Below are positions 4,183 to 41,017 of a DNA stretch of 64,000 nucleotides, one piece after another. This DNA comes from Taxawa tesnikishii (nom. ined.) (Eukaryota; Ascomycota; Dothideomycetes; Dothideales). A model generated the notes under the pieces. It did not search any database, was not told where the DNA came from, and saw nothing but the letters and a program-made list of their open reading frames with translations. The stretch's first letter is position 1, and every line of letters starts with the position of its first letter. Position numbers and translations under genes: made by a program. Location of the stretch: NCBI GenBank assembly GCA_030247885.1, contig JAPDRO010000023.1, positions 310,001 to 374,000 of the forward strand. The letters are read 5' to 3'.

Positions 4183-5720
4183 GCGGTGTTCCGAGAAGGC
4201 TTCATGTGCTCGTTGAAGCCGGGTTGATGAGAGGCCGTTTGCTGCGACGAAAGATTACGACAGACGATGATGATGAAAGATAATGGTTATGCCATGGAGA
4301 TGTAGAATGTTTTCAAACCCTGTCATGAATCGAACCGTTGGTTGCATTCGTGGGATGCTCTGTGCGTTGGTGTTGTGAAGTGTGTCTGTGAGGATTGTGT
4401 TGCTGTCGTAGATGGCCGTCTTTTAGGGCGGACGTCCTGCAAAAGTGTGCGGTTTGGTTGCAGACAAAAGGAAGAAGATCTTGGGGAGCGATCTGAAGAT
4501 TGGTATGCCCGCTTCTGCCTGCAGTCAATAAGACTTCTGCGTTGAACGTGGAAGTGAAAAGGAGGCCGACAATGGTACACGTACTAGTAGACTTTCAGGA
4601 ACCGAACGTGAGATGCGATACCAAACGCCCTGCCACATTGCCGTACCAGCAGCGATCGTGAGGTGCTTACTGCCCGAACTAGAGCAAATGTGGAGCGCAA
4701 GAGCAAAGCGTTCGGGCACATATACGTTCAGAACACGAGGAAGTAAAGCTATGATCCAACGTCGCAAGTCAATTCTTCGTGAACCGGATCGAGCTCTTGG
4801 AAAAAAAGGACGAGCACCAACCCCATTCAGCCCCTTCACACGCCTAGAAGAACCCACAAGGGATGCCGCCCACATGATCCATCGCGTCCATCCAACTGGC
4901 AAACGAGCTGTGGCAATTGTAGAACTCGAGTAAGTGGTACGGGCCCCAGCGCAACTCTAGACACTCGAGCTTGGCTGCAGTAAGCAGCTTCGAATGAGTC
5001 CAGTTTCCCGGACGCGCTTCCAAAGCCAGTCCATTGTTTGAGGCGTACCTCTTCTCTTGTGGGGCACCACTTACGATAGGTCGTGAATAGACATCTCGAT
5101 TGAAAGTCTCGAGAGGTGGTCCACTGCTGCCGAATATCAACCAACTGAACTATATAGCAAGTCGATCATGGGAAATCGGGCTGCGGAGTCGCGGCTTGCG
5201 GAAGCTAGAGACGGCCGCGCAGTGGACCGCTCTACACTGCGGGCCCTGCCCCTGAGCCTGGCATACACGCTGGAGCGCTCGAATTGAAACAGATAGCTGT
5301 ACTTACTTATAGTCGCTGATAGGAGATGCGAGTATTCAAGGTAATTTGTTGTCCTTCGCGGTACAGGGCCTCTGACTCGACTCTGGGAAGTAGATTGTTG
5401 GACGGCATGGGTGACAATCAATTTGGAATCCGAATTGTAATGGGTTATCGAGGGTCTCGTGATGTGGCTGTCAGAGCGTGAGAATGTTGCAGTACAAAAA
5501 GAGTACCTTTGAAGGGGAGGGCCGCGAATTTATATCTACAGTGAGCAAGCAAGAAGTTTTTACTTTACACTTTACGAACAAAGGTAGTTGAAGTTAGAGT
5601 TTAGAAACCAGAGTATGGAAAGCTTATTGAATGTAAAGTTTATCGCATACCGATCTACAAGCGATAGTTAGTCAAGCATCTCCTCAAATTAGCAACATGG
5701 CCATACAGCCATGAACTAGA
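4183..5720. other. intergenic, no gene supported
   Basis: A 1.5-kb gap between convergent ends of the SDR gene and RTT106. A plus-strand frame at 4613-4933 (106 residues) and a minus-strand frame at 5137-5421 are open but show no motif or intron that would support a gene. Confidence 0.4.
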
Positions 5721-7184
5721 TCATTCCTCTTCCCCTACATCATCATCATCTTCTTCTTCCATCTCTTCGCCGTTCTCATCATCATAGCCACCCTCGTCTT
5801 CCTCTCCGGTCTCAGAACCCTCGCCCTCACTCTCTCCCTCCGAGCCGGGGTCGTAATCTTCTTCCTCTTCGTCTTCCGCATCTTGCAACTCGCGCTCCGC
5901 TTTTTGCAACTCCGTTTCCTCTTCTTCCTCGTCCCCATTCTCCACGTGACCATTTGCCCCGGGCTCGCCCTTGACTTTCGGCGCATTGACGTTGAGTTTC
6001 TTCGCGCGACGCTCTGCGGCCATGGACGCGTCGTTGAGGTTATGGCGCTTGACGTAATCATCTATTCCGGCGTAATCTGCTTGGTCTAGCATCGAGAATT
6101 CAATGTCCTGTTTGGCCTGGTCCGGCGCGTTGGGCGTGATGGTGACGACCAGATTGAACGTGCGCTGCAGCACGGATGTGTATGAAATGGACTCGATAAG
6201 ATCGAACGTATATAGTCCCAGTGGCTTTTTGAATGCCCAAACAATTCCGCAGGACAAGAAGAACAGGTACCCTGATCATGTCAGCAAGCACATCAATCGC
6301 GATCGCTCTGAAATTTACCATCTTTGCTTCCCCTGTGCGCCTTGACATGGTATGCCTTCTCTCCTTTACGGTGACTCTGTGGTATGGCGCTCGCAAATTC
6401 CCTTTCATCCGGAAGTTGTATAGTGTTGCCCCACGCTTGCAGTCTCGAATCGAAACAGCGTGCTATACATGAGACATAAGTATCCTCTTCTTGAACCGCA
6501 ACCTCTTGACTTTGCAGCGTTTTAGGCGGGGTTTCCGGAACAGTGAAAACGATCTGATCGGGTACAGGATCTCCCCAAGAGTTGCCGGATGGCGGTCCGT
6601 CTTTGAGGAAGATAACGAAGTTTTGTTGTCTTTGTGTCTTCTCGGGAACTGGAAGACAGAACACCTGATCTGGAGTTGCGTGCGTTAGTTGGTAACAGAT
6701 CCTCGTCTGCAATGCAGCACGCATACCTATGTCCGTCCAGTCTACTCCATATTCCACTTTGCTTGTCTTTGGATCGGTGACTCTGAGCCCTCCTGCGTTC
6801 CCATCACCCACAAACTCCACTGTGTACTTCTTGCGCTGCGGCACAGAAAAGCTGACGTCTGTTACTACGCAAAATGGCTTCTGTGTCTGCCATGATCCCG
6901 CGCTCGTCGTGGCCGTAGTGGTAGGATGTACAGGTTCGTCGAGTTTGCGCTTTTTCGACTGGGGACCGTCTCCATTTATTGGAGGGTGGTGGGTAGTGCT
7001 TCGGCCGGTGATATACCTCGCAACATCGAGGAGGAGGTTCAACTGTCCTCTGTTCTCGTCTGTATTGATTAGCGACGGGCGCGATTTGCGAAAGAACGAT
7101 AGAATACATACTTGCGGCTTGAATGACACGCTCGCAAAGAGCAAGATCCCGGCTGAAAGCCTGGCGAATAAGTTCTCCTTCCAT
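5721..7184 (-). CDS. RTT106: histone chaperone Rtt106
   Basis: Three exons on the minus strand (7184-7112, 7059-6319, 6271-5721; introns of 52 and 47 nt) give 454 residues. A short helical N-terminus, a nuclear-localisation-like KKRK near residue 60, and a tandem PH-like core are followed by the diagnostic Rtt106 segment [18 protein letters not shown] and [14 protein letters not shown], which is rebuilt exactly when the second intron is removed. The last about 80 residues are almost all Glu, Asp and Gly, the acidic tail expected of this chaperone. Rtt106 binds H3-H4 (notably H3K56-acetylated) and deposits it during replication and in silencing; this is family knowledge. The start at 7184 was chosen because it leads in frame into [10 protein letters not shown] and through the first splice site. 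It is divergent with the next gene, start codons 302 bp apart. Confidence 0.95.
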
Positions 7185-9924: not shown

Positions 9925-12075
<2,151 letters not shown>

Positions 12076-24844: not shown

Positions 24845-27334
24845 CTACTCACCAACCTGATGCTCATAAACCATATCCACCTGCTTGACCGGATGTAAAA
24901 GCATCGCCGGGAGACACATCCTCCCCTCTCCCGCCAACTCGGCCTCCTCACCGCCATCATTGTCGACCTTGTAACCCAACCACCTCTTCCAAAGATTCGG
25001 CGCAAAACCCGCGTGGTAGTACCACGTCGTACCCAAAAAGTTATGCTGTCTCTCATCACTGAACACGCTCGTCCTAGCCCCTCCACTCGCGCCATTGCGC
25101 CCGTTGTTGAAGATGGCCGCGAGGTAGGACGTCGGCCAGCGTCGATCGATGTACACGGGATGCGGCGCGTAGACGGCTTTGAGACCGTGATGCAGGGCGC
25201 AGGAACCGGGCCACATTTCGCTGAACATGGTGTGCCGCATGAGTGCTGTTTCTCGGTGCATCGTCTCCAGCAGTCTTCTGCTGAGACGACTCGCGGTTAT
25301 GATGGCGGTGCGGCGGGGCGGGAAGTTGCCGCCAGAGGTGTTGTAGCCCGTGACGTCCTCGGCCAGGATCCAGTTCGTGTGTGTGGGGTCGAAGAGGGGG
25401 TTGAACGTGATGAAATCGGCTTCCTCATCCACGCCCCAGACGTAGTCATCCTTTGCGTAGGTAGTAGGCGGTTTAGGGTCGTTTTCGCTCTCGATCACAT
25501 TGCCCTCGCCGCTAGGTGGGAGAGGGCCCCAGACGGGCACTTCGGGCTTCTCGTCCGCGTCGGAGACGGATTTGGGATCCGCGCCTGCGGCGATCTTGTT
25601 GTAGATGGATGATTTGTGCGCCGTGCCGTGCTCGGTCTGAACACGCACCATCTGCTTAAAGTCCTCCCAGCTGCCATGTTCCGACGGGACGTAGAAGCGG
25701 CTGTTGCGCTCCCAGAGACCTTTGCGAGGTTGCTTGGCCGCCCATTTGCCGACGCGGTCAAAGAAATGGTAAAAGTGGCCCGTATAGCGGATGTCCATCT
25801 CCCAGTGCCAGAAGAAGTCATACTCGGGATGCATGTGCGCGAAGTATTGCATAGGCATGTACGTTGATCGGTAGGCGCCGTGCACAGGGAGGTCGCGATA
25901 GAAGGATTCGGCGACACCGCCGTATATGAGACCCATCTGCCGTTCTGACCAGAGTGTGCCCATTCCGCGGAACTCTTCGGGCAGAGCGTTGTTCAAGACA
26001 CGCTGATATGTCTCGTCGTCACTCCATATTTGCATGTTGTCGTCCTTTACGTGAATCAGGAAGTGGACGGTGTACTCACCGCCAGACTGGATCGATAGTT
26101 CGTTCACCAGAGCACGCAGGAAGAAGAGGTCCTCAGCGTCATACTGGTAGTCCCACCACGTCCGGATGATTACCGCCGTCCTCGGTAACAGGTTTTTGCC
26201 CGACGGTGCACGCTTTCCGTTCTCCTTCTCCGTGTGGTTGGACGAACTATCCACTTCCTCTGCAGTGAGCGCTGCGCTCACAGACTGTTGTGAAGCAGGT
26301 GGTTCTCTGTCCGGACCACCCACACCCATGGTCTGGAAGAAGTGGTTGCGGCCCTTTGGCTTCTCCTTGAACCTGAATCTGTTCTTGTGCGCACAACGCT
26401 CCTGTGCCTCCGCCCACTTGACAGTCCTGTAGTCGATTTCCAGCTGATCTCCCCAAACATTGTCCGCACCCTCTCTATCTCCCTCCATTCCCGCACCGCT
26501 GCCTCCCCACTTTCTGCTGTATCCGTACCCGTAGGGGCCTAATCTGCCGTGGCGCTCAAAACAAATCTCGTTGTTGAGACCTAGCAGCTCGTACGAGCCA
26601 AAGACGGGGTCCGGCATGCCTCGAGGAACGCCGTGGTAGCTGTGGAGTTGCGGGACCTTGACCTTGTCCTTGGCATCCAAGAAACACTCCTGCATCGGCT
26701 CATACTTGTCCTTGTACGCATCCGATCCGTACTGTGGGTATGGGTTGAACTTGTCTCCCGGAGGCACAGCTCCCTCCCTCTTGTTGAACCCTTTATCCGA
26801 TGGCTCTTTCTGCTGCTCTTCCAACGCCTCCGCAGTACTCGTGTCTACTCCATTGTTATCCGGATCCGGGTACTCTGGCTTGTTATTTCTCCTCGACGTC
26901 AACGTCCTGATACCACCATGATATCTCTTCAAGAATGGGAATTCCTCCCAAGGTGCAGGTTTCGGAGGCGGCTTTCGGAAGCTGAGTTGGATGTTCTGTT
27001 CGGACACGAAATGCGATCGCCATAGCATGAGAATGAATATGATCAGGGTCGAGCCGAGTGCGAGAGTGAAGTAGCGGGAGAACCGCCGCCGCGGCATGGA
27101 AAAGGACGTCGAGCGCGCCTTTCTCGTGGCGGAAGAACTTCGTCGCAACATTGGCTGGTGGGATCCAGAGATGTCGCGTGAAGGGTAGCTGCCGTCCGTA
27201 GGCGAGGAATTGTAGGGTGAGTCATCGAATGAGGCGCGCTTTTCTGGATCTATGAACTCGCCGCTCAGCGCGGTATAGGCTTCTTTCCTCCGGCCACCTA
27301 TGTTGAGCGGATTGAAAGACCTCGTAGGCGCCAT
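24845..27334 (-). CDS. DUF3405 type II membrane protein (Golgi/ER glycosyltransferase-like)
   Basis: A single exon of 829 residues. A Ser/Arg-rich cytosolic N-terminus is followed by one membrane span at about residues 88-105 (YFTLALGSTLIIFILMLW) and a large lumenal domain, i.e. a type II topology. The lumenal domain carries the DUF3405 features: an early GSYELLGLNNEICFERHGR block, then AVIIRTWWDYQYDAEDLFFL, the acidic FWHWEMDIRYTGHFY with its WxxExDxRxTG core, and the late WYYHAGFAPNLWKRWLG. DUF3405 is widespread in filamentous fungi and is thought to be glycosyltransferase-like because of the DxR/ExD motif; no activity is proven that I know of. Many RRSSS sites in the N-terminus could be phosphorylated. 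Length is typical (about 700-850). Confidence 0.93.
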   Translation of the reverse strand: MAPTRSFNPLNIGGRRKEAYTALSGEFIDPEKRASFDDSPYNSSPTDGSYPSRDISGSHQPMLRRSSSATRKARSTSFSMPRRRFSRYFTLALGSTLIIFILMLWRSHFVSEQNIQLSFRKPPPKPAPWEEFPFLKRYHGGIRTLTSRRNNKPEYPDPDNNGVDTSTAEALEEQQKEPSDKGFNKREGAVPPGDKFNPYPQYGSDAYKDKYEPMQECFLDAKDKVKVPQLHSYHGVPRGMPDPVFGSYELLGLNNEICFERHGRLGPYGYGYSRKWGGSGAGMEGDREGADNVWGDQLEIDYRTVKWAEAQERCAHKNRFRFKEKPKGRNHFFQTMGVGGPDREPPASQQSVSAALTAEEVDSSSNHTEKENGKRAPSGKNLLPRTAVIIRTWWDYQYDAEDLFFLRALVNELSIQSGGEYTVHFLIHVKDDNMQIWSDDETYQRVLNNALPEEFRGMGTLWSERQMGLIYGGVAESFYRDLPVHGAYRSTYMPMQYFAHMHPEYDFFWHWEMDIRYTGHFYHFFDRVGKWAAKQPRKGLWERNSRFYVPSEHGSWEDFKQMVRVQTEHGTAHKSSIYNKIAAGADPKSVSDADEKPEVPVWGPLPPSGEGNVIESENDPKPPTTYAKDDYVWGVDEEADFITFNPLFDPTHTNWILAEDVTGYNTSGGNFPPRRTAIITASRLSRRLLETMHRETALMRHTMFSEMWPGSCALHHGLKAVYAPHPVYIDRRWPTSYLAAIFNNGRNGASGGARTSVFSDERQHNFLGTTWYYHAGFAPNLWKRWLGYKVDNDGGEEAELAGEGRMCLPAMLLHPVKQVDMVYEHQVGE

Positions 27335-28854
27335 TAGTGACTCGATGGAGTCCTGGCAACAGCTTTGGTCTTATCACATGCAGCAGCTGTCTGCACTCCC
27401 GCGGCAGGTTGTGTTAGATCCGGAGAATACTGGTGGAGCTTTTACGAGGCGCTCTTCTAGACTTCCGGGTAGAGGTTGTGCGACTTGAGATCCCGAAGCC
27501 ACGTCAGGAACGGTCAACCAACGGTCGGGCGTTGCGCAGGCTGTTGGAGCCGAAAAATCCTAAAAGAGCCAAAGGTAATAGCGTACGGCAGAAGAAACAT
27601 GTACAGGCGGATATATTTGATATGGGTGTTTAGGTATGAGAGTGGTTGTGTTGACCCTTGCCAATCCTTCTCCGCACACCAAGCCACGCGAACAGACCCG
27701 TTTCTGCAGCGACGGATGCACTGTCGATCTCGAGACAACTTCAACTCCTTTGCTGCAAACTTACCGTTGAAAGAAGCATTGTACATACGCTTCTCCGCGC
27801 CCGTGCAGGAGGTTGAGATGCGTTCGGTCGTGTACCCGTGGCTGAGGATGCCGGCGCCGCTGCAGGTACTCCGGCACTGCCGGTGGTCATACCGGCAGTA
27901 CTACCGGTAGCGTTCGTCAAGTCCCCATCTCTTCGCCTCTGGAGGCCCCGTATCCACCTTCAGGAGCCTGGGCCAGTGGATGGTCCCTGATGGGAGGTGA
28001 TTCGTAGGTCTATCAGCCCTCGTATTCCAAGTGAAGGTCCTGCATCGGAACTGTGCCGCTTCCCGATCACTATTCGTGTCTCCGCCGATACCTACCCTCG
28101 CCGCTATGCATGGCGGCGCTCCTCCAGCATCTCATTGCGCAGTCGAGAGGGGTGTTTGAGCAAAGGCACGGAAGAGCGGACATGGTTTGATGGCTGCCTT
28201 CATTTTTCTTTCGCTCTCCTCTTGCTGAGGTACGTCTCACGTAAGCTCACCCTATGTACTTTCAATGATCAACTGAACAAACCGACTGACTGCTATTGCC
28301 ACTCGGCTGCAAAGTTTCCTTCATATGTATGGCTAGCATCGAAACCAGTATGCCACAGCTTGTATCTGTATATTTGTCTATATGCGGACATGATAAGAAT
28401 GCTGCCGGCTTGTGGTAGAATTTGGCCAAGCAGTGGAATGGCCTGTTGGTGCACTTGTCTTGTTCACGCTGTGCGCGACTCTATAACTATCGACGCAGTT
28501 GAAGTCACGCTCATGAGAATGGCGCTTGATGCGCGGCAGTATGTCTTCTACTCCAATTTCACATCTCTCTTAATCAGTGCACATACTTCGCCAGTGACTG
28601 AGCCAGTAATCACGTCATCATGTCACCGCTCTTCATGCATTTGCTGCCTTGGAGTCGCACGACTTCTTTGCTCCCTCTCTCTAACTGCAGCATAACCCTT
28701 CTCCAAACTGCAACTTCCGACACCCCTTGTCGCGTCCATCTGCCATCATCTCGAGCTTGACGTCCACGTCTGGGCATCATACTCCAACCACCTACCTACA
28801 CACCTGGATCAGACAGAGCGAAGCAGCTTCAGCAACTCTAGTTGCGTCGCCATC
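27335..28854. other. intergenic, no gene supported
   Basis: A 1.5-kb region between the divergent starts of the DUF3405 gene and an F-box-like gene. A plus-strand frame of 232 residues at 27997-28695 is open but Cys/Ser-rich without motif. A perfect inverted repeat lies at 27876-27899. Confidence 0.4.
27876..27899. repeat. inverted repeat, 9-bp arms
   Basis: ACTGCCGGT at 27876-27884 and its exact complement ACCGGCAGT at 27891-27899 are separated by six bases; further CCGGTA and CCGGC copies flank it. It sits about 550 bp upstream of the DUF3405 start and could be a dyad binding site or a hairpin. Function not known. Confidence 0.6.
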
Positions 28855-31449: not shown

Positions 31450-32585
31450 AGTAGTGGTGGTGGCCGAGACGAGAGACTAGCGAATGGCTATCTGGTGCAG
31501 GACCGATGGCGTGGTCAAAGGAGGCCCAGCCAGAGAAAGGCGAGGTAAAGATGAAGATACGAGAGATGCACCAGACAGACGCAGCGGGTATGGATGAAGC
31601 GTGGGGATAAGACGTCTATGGAGAAAGGGAAGAAACGGAAAGGCGATACGGTTTTGTTACATGTTGGTGGGGGTAGTTTCTACACAGAAACGACGACATC
31701 ATTGCTCGGCATGAGCGGCCATGCATGCAGCTGCTGGCGTGTGTTTGCGCGTTGAGGTAGGCGCAGGCCCTTGTCCGCGGCGCGGCAGGTAGCGAATCAT
31801 AATTTTGGCAACAACGTCATGGTCAACGCGTTCGCCAAACGCCGATCCTCTGCCCGGTGGGCATCTCTGTCCGGCACACGGCAGCGGCGCCCCAAGTTAA
31901 AATCGACATGGAAAGAAGGCCAAATTTATCAATGCGTACACCCTGAATCGGTTTGATTTGGCAGTTGGGTGAAGAGATTGATTGAAGATCGGAGGATCTG
32001 CGCCACGCCGGCAGCAATCTCGGACCTTGACAGGAGACTCTCTTGACCATGTTGGCGGGGGTAAACAGATTTGACTGACCGAGGAAACACAAGATCGTGC
32101 CCTGTCTTGCCTGAGGATAGAGCTCTCGTCTTGACACGCGGCTTCCCTTCCCAGCAAGTAAGTATAGGCGAACCGTCATCCGACGGAGCGGTGGGCAGTT
32201 GCCGGCCGGTTCGTCCTCCGCCCTCCCACCAGGCCGGTAGTCTGATGCTTGAAGTCTCCTCCACTCTAGCGCCAGATGAGCCTCGTTCAAGCTTCGTAAA
32301 CCGCTGCTTCCGGCCTCCACACACGTCATTGTTGCTCGTGCGATAAACTACGTCTGCAGGTGCAGGAAGTTACAGGACAACAAAGTCCATCTAAACCTTT
32401 GTTTCCTCACCTTCCGGTGCTTTCGTCCCATCCCATCCCATCATTGTCCAGACATACATCAACATCTGCTACCCCGCCGAGTAGATTCAGAGACGCTTCG
32501 CTCAGGCAACCTTCACTCTTTTTTCGGCTTGGGCCTTCACTCCATACTGACCAGCATCTCACCTATTCCTTGCAACAACCTCACA
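31450..32585. other. intergenic, shared upstream region, no gene supported
   Basis: This lies between the divergent starts of the SUR7-type and PLC-like genes. Overlapping frames at 31823-32346 have no motif. The 150 bp before the plus-strand ATG is C/T-rich (CCTTTGTTTCC..., CATCCCATCCCATC). Confidence 0.4.
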
Positions 32586-34082
32586 ATGCTGTTCCGGAGT
32601 CTCTGGCTCGGCTGCTTGCTGGCCGCTGGCAGCAATGCTCAATCATCTGGCTCACCATCAACTGACACTGCCACATCGACACTTACCGACACCTCTACAT
32701 CCATCGCCCCCGACACACGCTCCATCTTGACGCTTTCCGGGACCAATGCAAACGCAGCATCGTCTTTCACCGGCACTTATGCTGCAGTGACCGGTCAGTC
32801 GACAGTACCGTCTTCCTTGCTGAGCAAGGCGTCGACTGCATCAGGCTCAAGCAGTCGGAGCGGATCCGCCAGCTCAGCAGCTCCAGGTACGACAAGCACA
32901 ATCACGCTTCTCGCAGGCGGTGGAGCTGGAATCGTCACACAACTCGTCATCAACGGAACTACGACCTCGACCTTGAGCAGCAACTCCACAGCGTCAAGCA
33001 TGTCTTCGGGGTCGTCCACCTCCACCGCCGCACAACCTACCAACACCCAGCCTTGTAATGGCTACCCCGAGTTTTGCTCCAGGAAATACAGCAACATCAC
33101 TGAGGTCTGCGCGCACAATGCCGCCTTTTCCATTTCCGGCAACTCTTTCAGCAACCAGGCCCTCAGCATCACTCAACAGCTGAACGATGGCATCCGCATG
33201 AGTAAGTGCTGGCTGCTGCCTCTTCGTCGAAACAAGCTCGCTAACACCATCACAGTTCAAGGGCAAGTTCACTATGAGAACAACACCATCTGGAACTGCC
33301 ACACATCCTGCAGCATTCTCAACGCCGGCACTTGGCAAGCCGAGCTTGAGGAGATTGCAACCTGGGTTCGCTCCCACCCTTACGATGTCGTGACCCTACT
33401 CGTTGGAAACTACGACTACGTCGATGTTGGCAACTTCACCGCGCCGCTCGAAGCTTCCGGCCTCATGCCATACATCTATACGCCACCTAAGGTACCCATG
33501 CGTCTCAACGACTGGCCTACACTTTCCGAGATGATCCTGAACCAGGACCGTGTCGTCGTCTTCATGGACTACCAGGCCAACCAAACCGCTGTCCCGTACA
33601 TCCTCGACGAATTCACGCACATGTTCGAAACCCCCTTCTCACCGACCAACGTCAGCTTTCCATGCACCATCCAGCGTCCGCCAACACTCACGAACCAAAC
33701 GACCGCGCGCGAGGAGTGGATGTACCTCGCCAACCACAACCTGAACGTCGAGGTCAGCTTCCTGGGCAACAGCATCCTCATCCCAAACACTGCCGATCTC
33801 AACGTCACGAACGCCGCAGGTCAACAGCTCGGCATGCTTGGCGCCATGGACTCTGACTGCACCGAGCGCTGGGACCGCCCGCCGAACTTCTTGCTCGTGG
33901 ACTATTATAACGTCGGCAGCGGATCTGTTTTCGAAGTCGCCGCCAGAGCGAACGGTGTCACATACACGGGCCAGTGCTGTGGTACCGCCGCGTCATCGCC
34001 TGCTGGGCGCCTCCGCATGTCGGGTCTGCTCTTGGGCTTAGCAGCGGGCAGCACTCTGTTGCTGCTGTTCTGGCAGGGTTAA
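32586..34082 (+). CDS. PLC-like phosphodiesterase (TIM-barrel), GPI-type surface protein
   Basis: Two exons (32586-33201, 33256-34082) give 480 residues. A signal peptide (MLFRSLWLGCLLAAGSNAQS) precedes a Ser/Thr-rich stalk to about residue 155. The catalytic-type domain then begins NGYPEFCSRKYSNITEVCAH and contains LNDGIRM/IQGQVHY across the intron, NCHTSCSILNAGTW, ELEEIATWVRSHPYDVVTLL, and QDRVVVFMDYQA. This is the fungal PI-PLC X-like family. Many NxS/T sites suggest heavy glycosylation. The last 20 residues are hydrophobic after a small-residue stretch, a likely GPI-anchor signal. These fungal proteins lack proven phospholipase activity, so the enzymatic role is inferred from fold. Confidence 0.9.
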   Translation: MLFRSLWLGCLLAAGSNAQSSGSPSTDTATSTLTDTSTSIAPDTRSILTLSGTNANAASSFTGTYAAVTGQSTVPSSLLSKASTASGSSSRSGSASSAAPGTTSTITLLAGGGAGIVTQLVINGTTTSTLSSNSTASSMSSGSSTSTAAQPTNTQPCNGYPEFCSRKYSNITEVCAHNAAFSISGNSFSNQALSITQQLNDGIRMSKCWLLPLRRNKLANTITVQGQVHYENNTIWNCHTSCSILNAGTWQAELEEIATWVRSHPYDVVTLLVGNYDYVDVGNFTAPLEASGLMPYIYTPPKVPMRLNDWPTLSEMILNQDRVVVFMDYQANQTAVPYILDEFTHMFETPFSPTNVSFPCTIQRPPTLTNQTTAREEWMYLANHNLNVEVSFLGNSILIPNTADLNVTNAAGQQLGMLGAMDSDCTERWDRPPNFLLVDYYNVGSGSVFEVAARANGVTYTGQCCGTAASSPAGRLRMSGLLLGLAAGSTLLLLFWQG

Positions 34083-35129: not shown

Positions 35130-38100
35130 TCACAGAAACCCCTTCACGGCCCTACTCACGCCCTCCACATCCTCAAACCCATGCCAATGCCCGACCTCCT
35201 TCAACCACTCGATCTTCGCGCCTGGGATCTCACCGGCCAGCTTCTCCGCATGCGCGGGCTGGCTGACCTTATCCTCGTCGCCGGCGATGATCAACGTCTT
35301 CGCTTTCAACGTCTTGAGATCGACTTCCAGATCCTTCGCTCCGGCCAGCGCGGTGCAGCCCTTGGCGTACCCCTCCGGATCCTGGCTCAGCAAGCACATC
35401 TGCGTCGCGGCCAGCGCCAGGGGTCGCTCCGTCTTCGTCTTGGCAGCAGTGCCAGCCGTCGCCACCTGAATGGCGACGTTACGCATGCCCTCGGCACGGA
35501 CGGTCGCGGCGCGCTTGATGCTGCCTTCCGCGCCGGCGCGTGGAAGCGGGCATGGCGGAGGGCCGAGAAGGATGAGACGTTGGACGAGGTCAGGGTGCTG
35601 CGAGGCGAAGAGTTCGGCGATGAGACAGCCCATGGAGTGCGCTACGATGGTGATGCCGTTCTGAGTGGGGATGCTCAGTTCGGGAAGCTTGATGAGCTCA
35701 TGGAGGTCTTCGGCATAGCTCTCAATGCTGATCTTACAAGTGGCCTTGGTCGGGGACATGCCGTGGCCTTCGAGGTCGAAGAGGAGCGAGGTGTAGTCGG
35801 AATTATCATCCTTGTTCAGTCCAAGGCTTGCCAGTAGCGGGGTGTAGTATGAGATGTTTCCGCCCAAACCGTGGATGAAAGCGATCGTTTGGGACCCGTT
35901 GCCAAACTTCTTGACGTTCAAACGTTTGCCGTTTGGTAAACTAGTAAGACCGACCCCGCCCATGGTGATCGAGAGGTTGCTGATTGGTATCACAGACTCC
36001 TTCTCGACGCGCTTCGTGACGTGGTTGACAGCGTCCGCTTCGGCGATGCGATTTCTTAACGTTCCGAGGCCGGTGACTGAAATCTCAACTACATCTCCAG
36101 ATTTGAGGAAGGTGGGTGGCTTCAGTCCGAAGCCTACACCGGCGGGGGTTCCTGTAGCAATCACATCACCCGGCCGCAGCGTTTGAGACTCAGACAAAGT
36201 CTTGATCAAGGTCGGAACTGAGAATATGAGGTCTTCTGTCGTAGCTTCCTGACGCTTCTCGCCGTTCACGTGGGTTGTAACCTTGAGCACCTTTGGCAGA
36301 GCTGAAGCCGGAACGGCGACGGGTCCCATAGGACAGAAGGTATCCGCCGACTTGCCTAGTACGGATCAGCATTATTCCAACACTTGGACTAAGACCGCCA
36401 CTGAAATCAGTCACGAAAGCATCCTCACTGGCAGTGCGTGGGGAATCATGACCGATAACAGCACCGACAGAACAGACAAACTTACCTATATAGAATTGCT
36501 TGTGATCTCTCTGCTTCTCACGTGCCGTGACATCGTTAATGATGGTGTAGCCCCAGACGTGCTGTTCAGCGTCTTCTTCCGAGATCTTGAAGCCGCCTTT
36601 ACCGATGATGACGCCGATTTCGCCTTCATAGTCAAGGGTTTCCGTAAATCCGGAATGCAGAAGAATATCTTCTTCGTTGGCGATGATGGAGGTTGCCCGC
36701 TTTGTGAAGATGACGGGATGCGATGGCATATCAATCTTGTCAGATGCATCGTAGCCCGATGCATTGAACTCTTTGGCATGCTCCGAGTAATTTTTGCCCA
36801 CAGCAAGCACATCTCTGCCACTGATTGGAGGAAGGATGTTGACACTGTTGCCGTCAGCAAGGGTCCTACGCGGGATCGCGGAAGTCGAAGGAGGTTCAAG
36901 CTTGATCACTTACCTTGTATCCAATGCGAATGGTTCGCCTCCAGCAACAACCTCATCAACACCAACTTCCAACACCTGGTACAGGTTCTCGATTGGAGTT
37001 CCGCTCTTGAAGGACAGAGGAGTAATGTTTCCCTTGTCGTGATCAAGGTGCCCTATGCGGGTCCTACCCGTTCCATCGTTGAGCGCGTAGGCCACAAAGT
37101 TCTGCATCTTCTCAATTCTTGGCTCCATGATGGGCGGCGGGGCCTCTGTCTTGATAAATTCTTTGTAGCTTGCTTTGTGCACACGACCGTTTATGACGAT
37201 CACGTTGAGCTTGTCGTGGTCTTGTAGAACAGCAATGTCTTTGATAGGATCACCGTCCACAAGAATGCAGTCTGCGAAGTATCCAGGTAATATCTTGCCC
37301 AGCTCATCCTCGCGCATAAACAGCTTTGCGACTCCGGCTGTTGCTGCGACGACCGACTCCATCGGGGTAAACCCTAGCAGCTTAACAAAGTGCTCCAGGT
37401 CACGTGCATAAGTTCCGTGAGGTGTCCACGCGAAACCGAAGTCTCCGCCTGGCAAAACTGTTATACCCCTTTTATGCATCTCCTTCAGACCTTTGATAGC
37501 GACATCGAGCTCTTTCTTGTATCCGACCTGCTCTGCTTTTTCGAAGGAGTATCCGTAGGCTGCGGCGTCGTACAGCGTCGCGATTAGCCAATTGATACCC
37601 GGCGCGACGATGTGCTTATGCTTGTTCTTCTCGAGCATGTCCATGCCCTCGTCATCAACTGGGGATCTTCGTCAGCCCTGAACTAGAGACATGCATCTGA
37701 CGGTAACTCACTCCACGAAGCATGATAGATGATATCTACCCCGTGCTGTGGGTTCAATCAGCGTCAATTTCGCTGGAGTTCGTTGATAGCAGGAGCATAC
37801 CTCGATGCACATCTTGACGCTGTCCCTCGCTCGCGCATGCGCACAGAGACGAACGCCCTGCCTGTGCGCTTCGTCCACACAAGCTGCAGTCTCCGCGTCA
37901 GAAAAGTAGCAGTCTTGGGCATCTCTTGTTTCTGTGATCTGCTCTCCAGACATGCTGAGCTTGATCTGATCCACACCGATATCAATGTGATGTCTGATGA
38001 CTTCTCTCATCTCCAGCGGACCTTTGGCGAATGCTGTGATTCCTGGTACGAGTTCGCCGTCCGGAACAGCCATCTCTTTGCCGTTCGCCAGGTATCTTGG

Positions 38101-38696
38101 ACCGGGGAGGTCTCCATTGTTGATCGCGTCACGAATGACACAGTCCAACCTTTCCTTTGCAGAAGCTGCGCCAAAGCACATTGTGTATCCTGAGTCAAGA
38201 TAGCATTGTGCTGATCGTGCGGAAAGGAGCGTATGCTCCTCGACACCCAGCTCACCCAACCTTCCAAGGTCACCGTTGTTCCAGGAGAAGTGAACATGTG
38301 CATCGCCCAGCCCGCTCATGAGTGTCCTGCCACGGCCCGGTATGTGGCGTACTTTTGGATCTTTGATCAGACGGTCAACGTCGGGAACATTGCCAACATA
38401 ACGTATGCGCTCTCCTGCCAATGCGTGTCAGTGCATAACTCATCTCAGCGTAACTTTGAAGATATACCTTCTATGTAAACATCTCCATGATATGGATCTT
38501 TGCCCGTGCTGTCGATAATGTTGACGTCGGTGAACAGTATCTTCGAATCTGATCTTGTACCCTTGATCTGATAATTCTTGGGTTTGAGCGAAGGATCGAA
38601 GTGTACATGATCGTGAGGATTCATAGAATCGACTTTGGTATGACCATTAATGCCATTGGTCATTCTGCCGCTGTCGCCGATCACGGAGGGTGCCAT
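35130..38696 (-). CDS. three-domain fusion: amidohydrolase + FAH-family hydrolase + alpha/beta hydrolase
   Basis: Six minus-strand exons (38696-38468, 38414-37801, 37745-37712, 37658-36914, 36865-36486, 36355-35130) splice in frame to 1075 residues. Residues 1-540 are a metal-dependent amidohydrolase: H116/H118 in GLGDAHVHF, the lysine in VDQIKLSMSG, LCAHARARDS, HGVDIIYHASW, the metal aspartate in LPGGDFGF. Residues about 545-768 are a fumarylacetoacetate-hydrolase-type domain: AVGKNYSEHAKEF, DYEGEIGVIIGK, INDVTAREKQ, GKSADTFCPMGP, GTPAGVGFG. Residues about 800-1075 are an alpha/beta hydrolase: FIHGLGGN, nucleophile about Ser908 in VAHSMGC, AGDEDKV, GHWHGF. The amidohydrolase and FAH parts join through a canonical 48-nt intron in exact phase, and the FAH part has no ATG of its own before its core, so separate genes are unlikely. 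Likely role: serial hydrolysis of an aromatic or amide breakdown product, inferred only. No targeting signal seen. Confidence 0.85.
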
Positions 38697-40107: not shown

Positions 40108-40478
40108 TCGGGCTTTTGCTGAGCCAATGCCATCAGGCAGCCGAGTGAGGGAGTTTGGACGCGAACCCTATGAGCATGGGACAGAGGGAAAAATGAGCGC
40201 TGAACTTCGGAAGATCGGTCTCTTTGGAGCACGGGAACAGTCCGTAAGGGCGCCTGCACCGTATCGTGTGTTTGCGATGTTGTGAAGGCGAAGGGAAGGG
40301 ATGACAGCAAGGTGGCTTAGTCAGCAACGTGAAATGCCAAGGCTTGCAACTCTTAGGCCTCAAGGTCTTCCATCAACTTTACATATACTCCACAAGCGAT
40401 GCTATACCCTCAGCCAGACCATAAAGTAATCGCAGAGCTAGTCTGCTAGAGAAGGAAGAGCTTCGAGTGCATTTCATC
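40108..40478. other. intergenic spacer
   Basis: 370 bp between two plus-strand genes, presumably the promoter of the Alba gene. Nothing else was seen. Confidence 0.4.
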
Positions 40479-41017
40479 ATGGCGCTCGGCAGTGCCGCCC
40501 CAGCAGCGGATAAGCTTGCAGGAAAATACAACCTCATTCATCTCAGCGTGATATCATCAAGTCCCATCGCCAGCCGGACATCAGCAGTCATTCAGCATCT
40601 CACCACTCAGCCAAATGAGAATCCCAAACCCGCTCTGATCAGTGTTTCTGCCAAAGCACCAGTGGCCAACAAGCTCATCAGCATTATCGAAATAGCGAAA
40701 CGTGAGCTTGCCCGAAACCAAGCGAATATGTACCAGTACAGCGCTCTTTCATCTGAGACTGTCCCCTTGAACCAGTTGAAAGGAAGGATGAAGCGGAAAA
40801 CTGGTGATGGTGGGCAGAAAGGCAACAGAGACGTTGAAAGCGAGGAGGATGCATTTGAAACCATGGGCGAGAAGGAGCAAATCAGAGCCGTACCCGTCTT
40901 GACCGTGTATCTGAGCACTGTTCGCATTCAGGAGTTGAAGGAAGCTTACGGGTACGTCCTGCGATCTGTCTGGCCTGTGTGAGCTAATGGTGCTTTACTA
41001 GTGAGCAAGTGAGCTAA
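40479..41017 (+). CDS. Alba-domain nucleic-acid-binding protein
   Basis: Two exons (40479-40951, 41002-41017; a 50-nt intron) give 162 residues. The Alba core is clear: KYNLIHLSVISSSPIASRTS, PALISVSAKAPVANKLISII, EIAKRELARNQANMYQYSAL; then a lysine-rich insert with an acidic patch, and a closing strand AVPVLTVYLSTVRIQELKEA ending YGEQVS after the short last exon. Alba proteins bind DNA and RNA and in eukaryotes include the Rpp20/Rpp25 subunits of RNase P/MRP; which role applies here is unknown. The first in-frame ATG is at 40479. The last exon of 16 nt was chosen because it restores the YGEQ ending common in the family. Confidence 0.85.

What the first reader, a model, noticed from the sequence alone, without database searches (positions are those of the whole stretch)
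35130..38696. Apparent three-enzyme fusion: amidohydrolase, FAH-family hydrolase and alpha/beta hydrolase in one chain
Seen: five GT-AG introns, all in phase, link three complete catalytic domains into 1075 residues. The join between the first two is a 48-nt intron with a strong GTAAGTGATC donor, splitting one arginine codon. The only stop between them lies inside that intron, and the second domain has no ATG before its conserved core. Known: amidohydrolases, fumarylacetoacetate-type hydrolases and C-C-cleaving alpha/beta hydrolases all act late in aromatic or amide catabolism. Inferred: the protein may channel one compound through three hydrolytic steps. All main catalytic residues appear present. 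I cannot say whether this architecture has been reported.
Basis: partly seen in the sequence, partly recalled or inferred. Interest (0 to 1): 0.75.

Follow-up and report, generated by a model that had tools for sequence, protein, structure and literature searches.

The report
Fungal three-enzyme fusion mirroring bacterial operon
A fungal gene strings three different hydrolytic enzymes into one protein, and the same three enzymes are neighbouring genes in many bacteria, so they very probably work together in one still unidentified breakdown pathway.

Summary
The fusion holds at sequence level. On the minus strand, 38696..35130 gives six exons, one unbroken frame of 1075 aa (1068 with a likelier acceptor for intron 4) and the main catalytic residues of an amidohydrolase (AMH), a fumarylacetoacetate-hydrolase-family enzyme (FAH) and an alpha/beta hydrolase (ABH). 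AMH meets FAH inside one uninterrupted exon (about 37126-37107) and FAH meets ABH inside another (about 36036-35939), so neither join depends on a splice call.

The three parts are relatives of three neighbouring bacterial genes. Of the 80 bacterial loci kept as closest to the AMH family, chosen without regard to neighbours, 73 carry FAH-ABH-AMH on one strand. In nine of these (Nocardia, Rhodococcus, Williamsia, Streptomyces) FAH and ABH are already one frame. The fungus holds the most fused state seen, with AMH moved to the front.

Best reading: one chain for the three hydrolytic steps of a compact catabolic pathway. Substrate and step order are unknown, and my searches found no description of operon or fusion. 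Bacterial origin is likely but unproven, because no fungal relatives could be searched.

The parts
35130..38696 (-). whole coding region of the AMH-FAH-ABH fusion gene (6 exons, 1075 or 1068 aa)
   Evidence: splicing and frame; three Pfam domains; bacterial proteins align along it
38468..38696 (-). exon 1: about 50-residue N-terminal extension absent from the five bacterial AMHs aligned, then AMH start
37801..38414 (-). exon 2: AMH core with metal ligands H116, H118, K228, H269
37712..37745 (-). exon 3: AMH micro-exon (34 nt) with metal-ligand H289
   Evidence: (GVDIIYHASW matched)
36914..37658 (-). exon 4: AMH C-terminal half (D365), AMH-FAH join and FAH N-terminal region, one uninterrupted frame
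   Evidence: C. occultum AMH aligns to 37126 (two other AMHs to 37174) and Nocardia FAH-ABH from 37116
37107..37126 (-). join between AMH and FAH; ATGs at 37128 and 37107
36845..36913 (-). intron 4, inside FAH: 36913-36845 (69 nt, CTGAC branch-like motif) likelier than 36913-36866 (48 nt); holds an in-frame TAA
36486..36865 (-). exon 5 (from 36844 if intron 4 is 69 nt): FAH core, H570/E573, metal ligands E621, E623, D652
36356..36485 (-). intron 5 (130 nt), inside FAH
35130..36355 (-). exon 6: FAH C-terminus (K669), linker of about 32 residues, complete ABH (S908, D1029, H1057), one uninterrupted frame

Best explanation
The gene encodes one protein of about 1070 residues that carries all three enzymes of a compact hydrolytic catabolic (or detoxification) pathway. 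In bacteria the same three enzymes come from neighbouring genes, usually beside a GntR/FCD regulator and with varying importers. SHOWN: the continuous frame, three complete domains with intact catalytic residues, relationship of each domain to a conserved bacterial FAH-ABH-AMH gene set, and bacterial FAH-ABH single-frame fusions as a partly fused state. INFERRED: the AMH domain (metal-dependent, carboxypeptidase/prolidase-like) cuts an amide or lactam; the FAH domain (metal-enolate type, nearest solved relatives YisK and EaFAH) cleaves or decarboxylates a 2,4-dioxo-acid-like intermediate; the ABH (enol-lactonase/esterase-like Ser-Asp-His enzyme) hydrolyses an ester, lactone or, less likely, a C-C bond. 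Order of steps, substrate and any channelling are unknown. The fungal gene most likely derives from a bacterial, perhaps actinobacterial, gene set, with introns gained and genes fused afterwards.
For: Splicing and frame; Pfam domains. All 16 catalytic or ligand positions checked are present in the fungus; each is the same in all bacterial homologues aligned (88 for AMH, 81 for FAH, 80 for ABH), except E573 with one gap (80 of 81). 73 of 80 genome loci retrieved by AMH alone carry FAH-ABH-AMH on one strand, and 6 of 8 plasmid loci; median gaps over these 79 are 32 and 72 nt between aligned parts. In nine of the 73, FAH-ABH is one unbroken frame. Identity to the fungus up to 65% (AMH), 61% (FAH), 40% (ABH). 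A GntR/FCD regulator is annotated nearby in 7 of 8 plasmid loci and found in 5 of 7 ORFs scanned directly upstream in genome loci. Folds of bacterial homologues: FAH part nearest YisK and EaFAH, AMH nearest prolidase/carboxypeptidase/ochratoxinase structures.
Against: No transcript evidence; the exact acceptor of intron 4 is open. No substrate or activity known; no NCBIfam model reaches its cutoff. The fungal domain order (AMH first) differs from the bacterial gene order (AMH last), so this is not a simple read-through of the operon. Seven of 80 genome loci and two of 8 plasmid loci lack the full arrangement. The 80 are the closest relatives and include related genera, so 73 are not independent events. 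No fungal genomes were searchable, so origin and conservation in fungi are untested. Trees leave the fungus on a long branch, unresolved when concatenated.
Confidence: 0.75

Rival explanations
1. Two or three ordinary neighbouring genes are joined on paper only; the real transcripts start or stop between the domains, for example an AMH mRNA ending at the TAA in retained intron 4 and an FAH-ABH mRNA starting at the ATG at 37128 or 37107.
For: ATGs exist at the AMH-FAH join and a stop lies in intron 4. AMH was not found fused in the bacterial loci examined.
Against: Both joins lie inside uninterrupted exons. An AMH-only product would run about 64 residues into FAH before meeting a stop, and FAH homology lies on both sides of intron 4. 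Bacterial FAH-ABH fusions exist.
Confidence: 0.06
2. The fusion is expressed but the enzymes do not act on one compound; it is a chance or regulatory fusion with separate roles.
For: No substrate known; the nearest families are broad.
Against: The same three families lie together in 73 of 80 bacterial loci picked by AMH alone and are partly fused in nine of them, which independently argues for a shared pathway.
Confidence: 0.12
3. The FAH-ABH half came already fused from a Nocardiaceae-like donor, and only AMH was added in the fungus.
For: FAH-ABH is one frame in nine genome loci and in all 8 loci that show the three genes among 14 from a sample of the G001 family, overlapping at least in part with those nine. 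Shared motifs such as GHWH and NYSEHA (by eye).
Against: The concatenated tree does not place the fungus with the fused clade. Holding them together costs 9.68 log-likelihood units, p-AU 0.071: not rejected, not supported. Linkers differ in length.
Confidence: 0.25
4. The architecture is old and widespread in fungi, inherited vertically and perhaps already listed in protein databases, and therefore not a recent transfer.
For: Five introns show residence in a eukaryotic genome; GC3 of 0.62 lies just below that of six other window ORFs, 0.63-0.81. The fungal branch is long (1.16).
Against: AMH identity of 60-65% to many actinobacterial genes and an AMH tree position among Actinomycetota (support 85) favour a bacterial source at some time. 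Age cannot be tested here.
Confidence: 0.35

Closest known systems
Bacterial FAH-ABH-AMH gene set, usually with a GntR/FCD regulator (e.g. Corynebacterium occultum pCOCCU, Azospirillum argentinense AbAZ39_p4, Cupriavidus metallidurans pMOL30, Pseudonocardia)
   Same: The same three protein families, close together, with the same catalytic residues
   Different: Separate genes, AMH last instead of first; function not described in any source I found
Bacterial FAH-ABH single-frame proteins (Nocardia, Rhodococcus, Williamsia, Streptomyces hygroscopicus)
   Same: FAH followed by ABH in one chain
   Different: AMH remains a separate downstream gene; shorter linker
YisK (B. subtilis, 8sut/8sky) and EaFAH (6iym), FAH superfamily
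   Same: Nearest solved FAH structures by sequence and by fold of a bacterial homologue
   Different: Single-domain enzymes; YisK reported as an oxaloacetate decarboxylase (title seen in the reference list of PMC12176266); substrate here unknown
Zn-dependent arginine carboxypeptidase/prolidase/ochratoxinase group of amidohydrolases (3be7, 2qs8, 4c5y)
   Same: Fold (bacterial homologue) and metal-centre residues
   Different: About 21-29% identity among these; substrate pocket not compared
3-oxoadipate enol-lactonase PcaD and related esterases (2xua)
   Same: Nearest solved ABH relative by sequence and among the nearest NCBIfam models
   Different: 109.5 bits against a PcaD cutoff of 255.85, so not PcaD
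HpaG and bifunctional PcaCD/PcaDC proteins (as named by NCBIfam)
   Same: Catabolic enzymes fused in one chain
   Different: Two functions and other partners; all below cutoff here

Membership tests
Amidohydrolase superfamily (Amidohydro_1) | HxH...K...H...H...D metal-binding set (roles recalled) | tested here: met
   H116, H118, K228, H269, H289, D365, each the same in 88 of 88 homologues; Pfam 66.2 bits, cutoff 25
NCBIfam Xaa-Pro dipeptidase NF051886 | score above curated cutoff 500 | tested here: not met
   179.4 bits; three bacterial homologues 201.6-216.4
FAH superfamily (FAA_hydrolase) | Glu-Glu-Asp metal site, lysine and lid His-Glu pair (roles recalled; lysine K123 of FAHD1 seen in PMC12176266) | tested here: met
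   E621, E623, D652, K669, H570, E573; Pfam 228.2 bits, cutoff 23.9
Acylpyruvase/oxaloacetate decarboxylase (FAHD1/YisK function) | enzymatic activity on those substrates | not testable with these tools
   only sequence and fold similarity
Alpha/beta hydrolase fold | Ser-Asp-His triad and family profile | tested here: met
   S908, D1029, H1057, each the same in 80 of 80 homologues; Pfam 68.8 bits, cutoff 25.8
PcaD 3-oxoadipate enol-lactonase TIGR02427 | score above cutoff 255.85 | tested here: not met
   109.5 bits
Meta-cleavage product (C-C) hydrolase BphD TIGR03343 | score above cutoff 462.15 | tested here: not met
   34 bits
Bacterial FAH-ABH-AMH set | all three families present and alignable | tested here: met
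Bacterial FAH-ABH-AMH set | order FAH-ABH-AMH | tested here: not met
   fungal order is AMH-FAH-ABH
Horizontally acquired gene | nested in a bacterial clade with fungal relatives sampled | tested here: inconclusive
   within Actinomycetota in the AMH tree at modest support, unresolved when concatenated; no fungal relatives available

The most novel reading that the evidence does not exclude
A fungus took up a bacterial three-gene catabolic operon for an undescribed hydrolytic pathway and condensed it into a single 'operon-in-a-protein' gene. The changed order (AMH first) could come from fusion across the junction of a tandemly repeated operon. Bacterial FAH-ABH fusions would show the same tendency arising separately, which would suggest that handing an unstable intermediate between these active sites is selected for.
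Probability: 0.4. Interest if true: 0.7.

Novelty: new variant of a known kind. Interest (0 to 1): 0.56.

Why it matters
Gene fusion plus conserved gene neighbourhood is strong indirect evidence that proteins share a pathway. Here both point at the same three hydrolases of unassigned function, in bacteria and in a fungus. That gives a defined three-enzyme pathway with a natural single-chain version, which makes substrate discovery and tests of channelling practical. It also offers a possible case of a bacterial operon becoming one eukaryotic gene, with a partly fused form surviving in bacteria.

Tried and rejected
No whole genome is held for the window, so copy number and the fungal species could not be examined. 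Close relatives of FAH or AMH in viral contigs: none found. Rfam: no hit in the window.

A catabolic gene cluster around the fungal gene: 20 ORFs, out of 90 largely non-overlapping ones of at least 100 aa listed, were scanned with Pfam. They gave DUF3405, SUR7, 6PGD, MYG1, a pyridine-nucleotide-disulphide oxidoreductase, weak DUF7730 and carboxylesterase matches, and otherwise nothing. The two nearest scanned ORFs (32280-34079, 40425-40979) had no family. A cluster is not excluded, since 70 were not scanned (some of these are the fusion itself).

Literature: ten answered searches. Nine looked for this fusion, the operon or a precedent; the tenth concerned YisK. None listed a paper on an AMH-FAH-ABH fusion or on this operon, in open-licence PMC text only. 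PMC10512309 (passages) lists amidohydrolase, FAH and alpha/beta hydrolase genes, among others, induced by lactams and lactones in Fusarium verticillioides, under separate gene numbers. PMC7842363 (passages) and PMC12176266 (passages) gave no match to the architecture. PMC12625717, PMC10138114, PMC4558063, PMC5371717 and PMC10825186 were seen in search listings only.

A substrate guess (tetramic-acid-like lactams, 3-oxo-acyl homoserine lactones) was considered from the chemistry and dropped: one search for tetramic acids with the enzyme names found nothing, and transporter types beside the bacterial genes differ.

A common donor with the bacterial FAH-ABH fusions is neither shown nor rejected. 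The single-domain trees were cut in the output: I saw most of the FAH tree and the lower part of the AMH tree, not the ABH tree.

The 48-nt intron 4 was taken over from the finding and questioned only on re-checking; favours 69 nt. The seven residues in doubt (RTLADGN in the 1075-aa model, or their equivalent) lie before the catalytic FAH core, so the domain, residue and operon results do not change.
Full report
OBSERVATION. The stretch was read on both strands. Splicing the minus strand at the finding's five GT-AG introns gives exons 38696-38468, 38414-37801, 37745-37712, 37658-36914, 36865-36486 and 36355-35130, a 3228-nt CDS and 1075 residues. Pfam places Amidohydro_1 at 108-452, FAA_hydrolase at 560-771 and Abhydrolase_1 at 825-1062. 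Bacterial proteins aligned to the unspliced window by tblastn cover the same stretch and lose similarity at the introns. Donors of introns 4 and 5 are full GTAAGT matches, that of intron 3 matches five of six positions, and those of introns 1 and 2 (GTATAT, GTATGC) are weaker.

INTRON 4. Introns 1, 2, 3 and 5 each have CTGAC or CTGAT starting 14-17 nt before the intron end. The 48-nt form of intron 4 has no such motif; the 69-nt form (36913-36845) has CTGAC at 13. Four acceptors (36866, 36845, 36821, 36815) keep the frame, giving 1075, 1068, 1060 and 1058 aa. Mean local alignment scores to 19 bacterial FAH or FAH-ABH proteins are 803.7, 802.6, 795.6 and 793.9, so homology does not decide between the first two. 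I take 69 nt as likelier. The fusion does not depend on this.

WHERE THE JOINS ARE. The Corynebacterium occultum AMH aligns down to window 37126 (residue 419 of 422); two other AMHs stop at 37174. A Nocardia FAH-ABH protein aligns from 37116. Both lie in exon 4, which has no stop. The FAH-ABH join (FAH matches end at about 36036, ABH matches begin at about 35939) lies in exon 6, also uninterrupted. The AMH has about 50 extra N-terminal residues compared with five bacterial AMHs.

CATALYTIC RESIDUES (1075-aa numbering). AMH: H116, H118, K228, H269, H289, D365, each the same in 88 of 88 bacterial homologues. FAH: H570, E621, E623, D652, K669 the same in 81 of 81, E573 in 80 of 81 (one gap). ABH: H829, S908, D1029, H1057 the same in 80 of 80. 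Their roles are recalled from the families; the role of lysine K123 of FAHD1 was read in PMC12176266 (passages).

BACTERIAL COUNTERPART. tblastn in plasmids found good places of all three parts close together in the same records. I fetched eight plasmid regions. Seven have FAH, ABH and AMH within about 5 kb; in L002 a DUF1636 gene lies between ABH and AMH, in L006 a regulator on the other strand lies between FAH and ABH, and in L007 FAH is on the other strand. L008 has only AMH. A genome scan with the AMH alignment A1 gave 513 confirmed relatives, of which the tool kept the best 80. Of these 80, 73 have FAH-ABH-AMH on one strand; with 6 of the 8 plasmid loci that makes 79, median gaps 32 and 72 nt between aligned parts. 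The other seven are L060 and L074 (AMH at the contig edge), L076 (no match in the 2.2 kb held upstream), and four proteobacterial MAGs, L075, L078, L079 and L086, of which L078 has a weaker FAH on the other strand. Neighbours played no part in choosing the 80, but they are close relatives and many come from related genera, so 73 is not a count of independent events.

PARTLY FUSED BACTERIAL FORMS. In nine of the 73 (L062, L064, L065, L066, L068, L069, L070, L077, L083) FAH and ABH are one unbroken frame. A sample of 301 genomes of the family of G001 (the genome of L062) had 13 genomes with a match at E <= 1e-120. Of the 14 loci, 8 (L089-L095, L097) show FAH-ABH-AMH and all 8 are FAH-ABH fused; L096, L098 and L102 are cut short upstream, L099 and L100 show AMH only, L101 shows AMH then ABH. 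L091 is the genome of L062, and others may repeat. In 396 genomes of that phylum only G001 itself matched; in 398 of the phylum of G004, 6 matched including G004, and 4 of their 6 loci show all three genes. These searches score only a few candidates a genome, so misses are possible. The set looks patchy, as expected of an accessory catabolic trait. I tested FAH-ABH and ABH-AMH for bacterial single frames in the loci and FAH-ABH alone in those; no ABH-AMH frame was found.

NEIGHBOURS. A GntR/FCD-type regulator is annotated nearby in 7 of 8 plasmid loci. Of seven ORFs scanned directly upstream in genome loci, five are GntR/FCD (L011, L061, L066, L081, L087); that of L015 is a short-chain dehydrogenase and that of L012 has no family. 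ORF clustering found one mainly upstream group in 68 loci, whose members I did not all scan. A downstream ORF group occurs in 21 loci; the one scanned, in L028, is DUF1636, which also lies between ABH and AMH in Azospirillum. Transporters nearby vary: MFS (L001, L003, L061, L087), branched-chain-type ABC (L002, L085), sugar-type ABC (L004), amino-acid permease (L062).

EVOLUTION. The single-domain trees and a concatenated tree of 35 rows leave the fungus on a long branch. In the AMH tree it falls among actinobacterial rows (support 85; single support values, so apparently the quick method, its header being cut). In the FAH tree and the concatenated tree it is unresolved; its highest identity is 56% over 864 columns (Actinomycetospora succinea). 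Grouping it with the FAH-ABH-fused clade is not favoured (lnL 9.68 lower) and not rejected (p-AU 0.071). Introns show residence in a eukaryote. GC3 is 0.62 (AMH 0.57, FAH 0.58, ABH 0.76) against 0.63-0.81 in six other window ORFs. Transfer from bacteria is the likeliest source, but without fungal relatives its age, direction and frequency stay open.

STRUCTURE. Models were made of bacterial homologues only: the fused FAH-ABH of L062 (mean pLDDT 83.5, pTM 0.56) and the AMH of L034 (79.9, pTM 0.81). Nearest PDB folds: YisK and EaFAH for FAH, esterase 4uhc and enol-lactonase 2xua among those for ABH, prolidase/carboxypeptidase and ochratoxinase for AMH. The low pTM of the fused model gives no support for a fixed domain arrangement.

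FUNCTION. No NCBIfam model listed for the three parts reaches its cutoff. The committed reading is one chain for a three-step hydrolytic pathway: amide or lactam opening by AMH, cleavage or decarboxylation of a dioxo-acid-like intermediate by FAH, ester/lactone (less likely C-C) hydrolysis by ABH. The order and the substrate are inference.

NOVELTY. The families, folds and chemistry are known in outline. The AMH-FAH-ABH chain and the operon it mirrors were not found described in nine full-text searches of open-licence PMC. Protein databases with fungal entries could not be consulted, so the architecture may already be listed there as an automatic annotation.

Noticed in passing
L062, L064, L065, L066, L068, L069, L070, L077, L083 (about 4200-6056 in each); L089-L095, L097: FAH and ABH are one unbroken frame in Nocardia, Rhodococcus, Williamsia and Streptomyces hygroscopicus: a natural two-enzyme bacterial fusion.
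   Followed up: yes
L028:7256-7843 (+); L002:8469-8864 (+): A DUF1636 gene accompanies the FAH-ABH-AMH genes in distant bacteria and may be a fourth member of the set.
   Followed up: partly
L001:5319-6206 (+): Corynebacterium occultum has a second FAH gene with its own GntR gene just upstream of the set.
   Followed up: no
window 36913-36908 (-): The donor of intron 4 (GTAAGT) contains an in-frame TAA and the intron length is a multiple of three, so retention would yield an AMH protein with a FAH stub; possible regulation by splicing.
   Followed up: no
window 35130-38696 (-): GC3 differs within the fusion: AMH 0.57, FAH 0.58, ABH 0.76, which might reflect different histories of the parts.
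   Followed up: no
window 24848-27370 (-): An 841-aa open frame whose C-terminal two thirds match DUF3405 (735 bits), a family of unknown function.
   Followed up: no
window 32280-34079 (+): A 600-aa open frame resembling a secreted, Ser/Thr-rich PLC-like phosphodiesterase (recalled resemblance); no Pfam match at 0.001.
   Followed up: no
window 10551-11381 (-): Weak carboxylesterase match (29.1 bits, cutoff 27) in an open frame that covers only part of the family.
   Followed up: no
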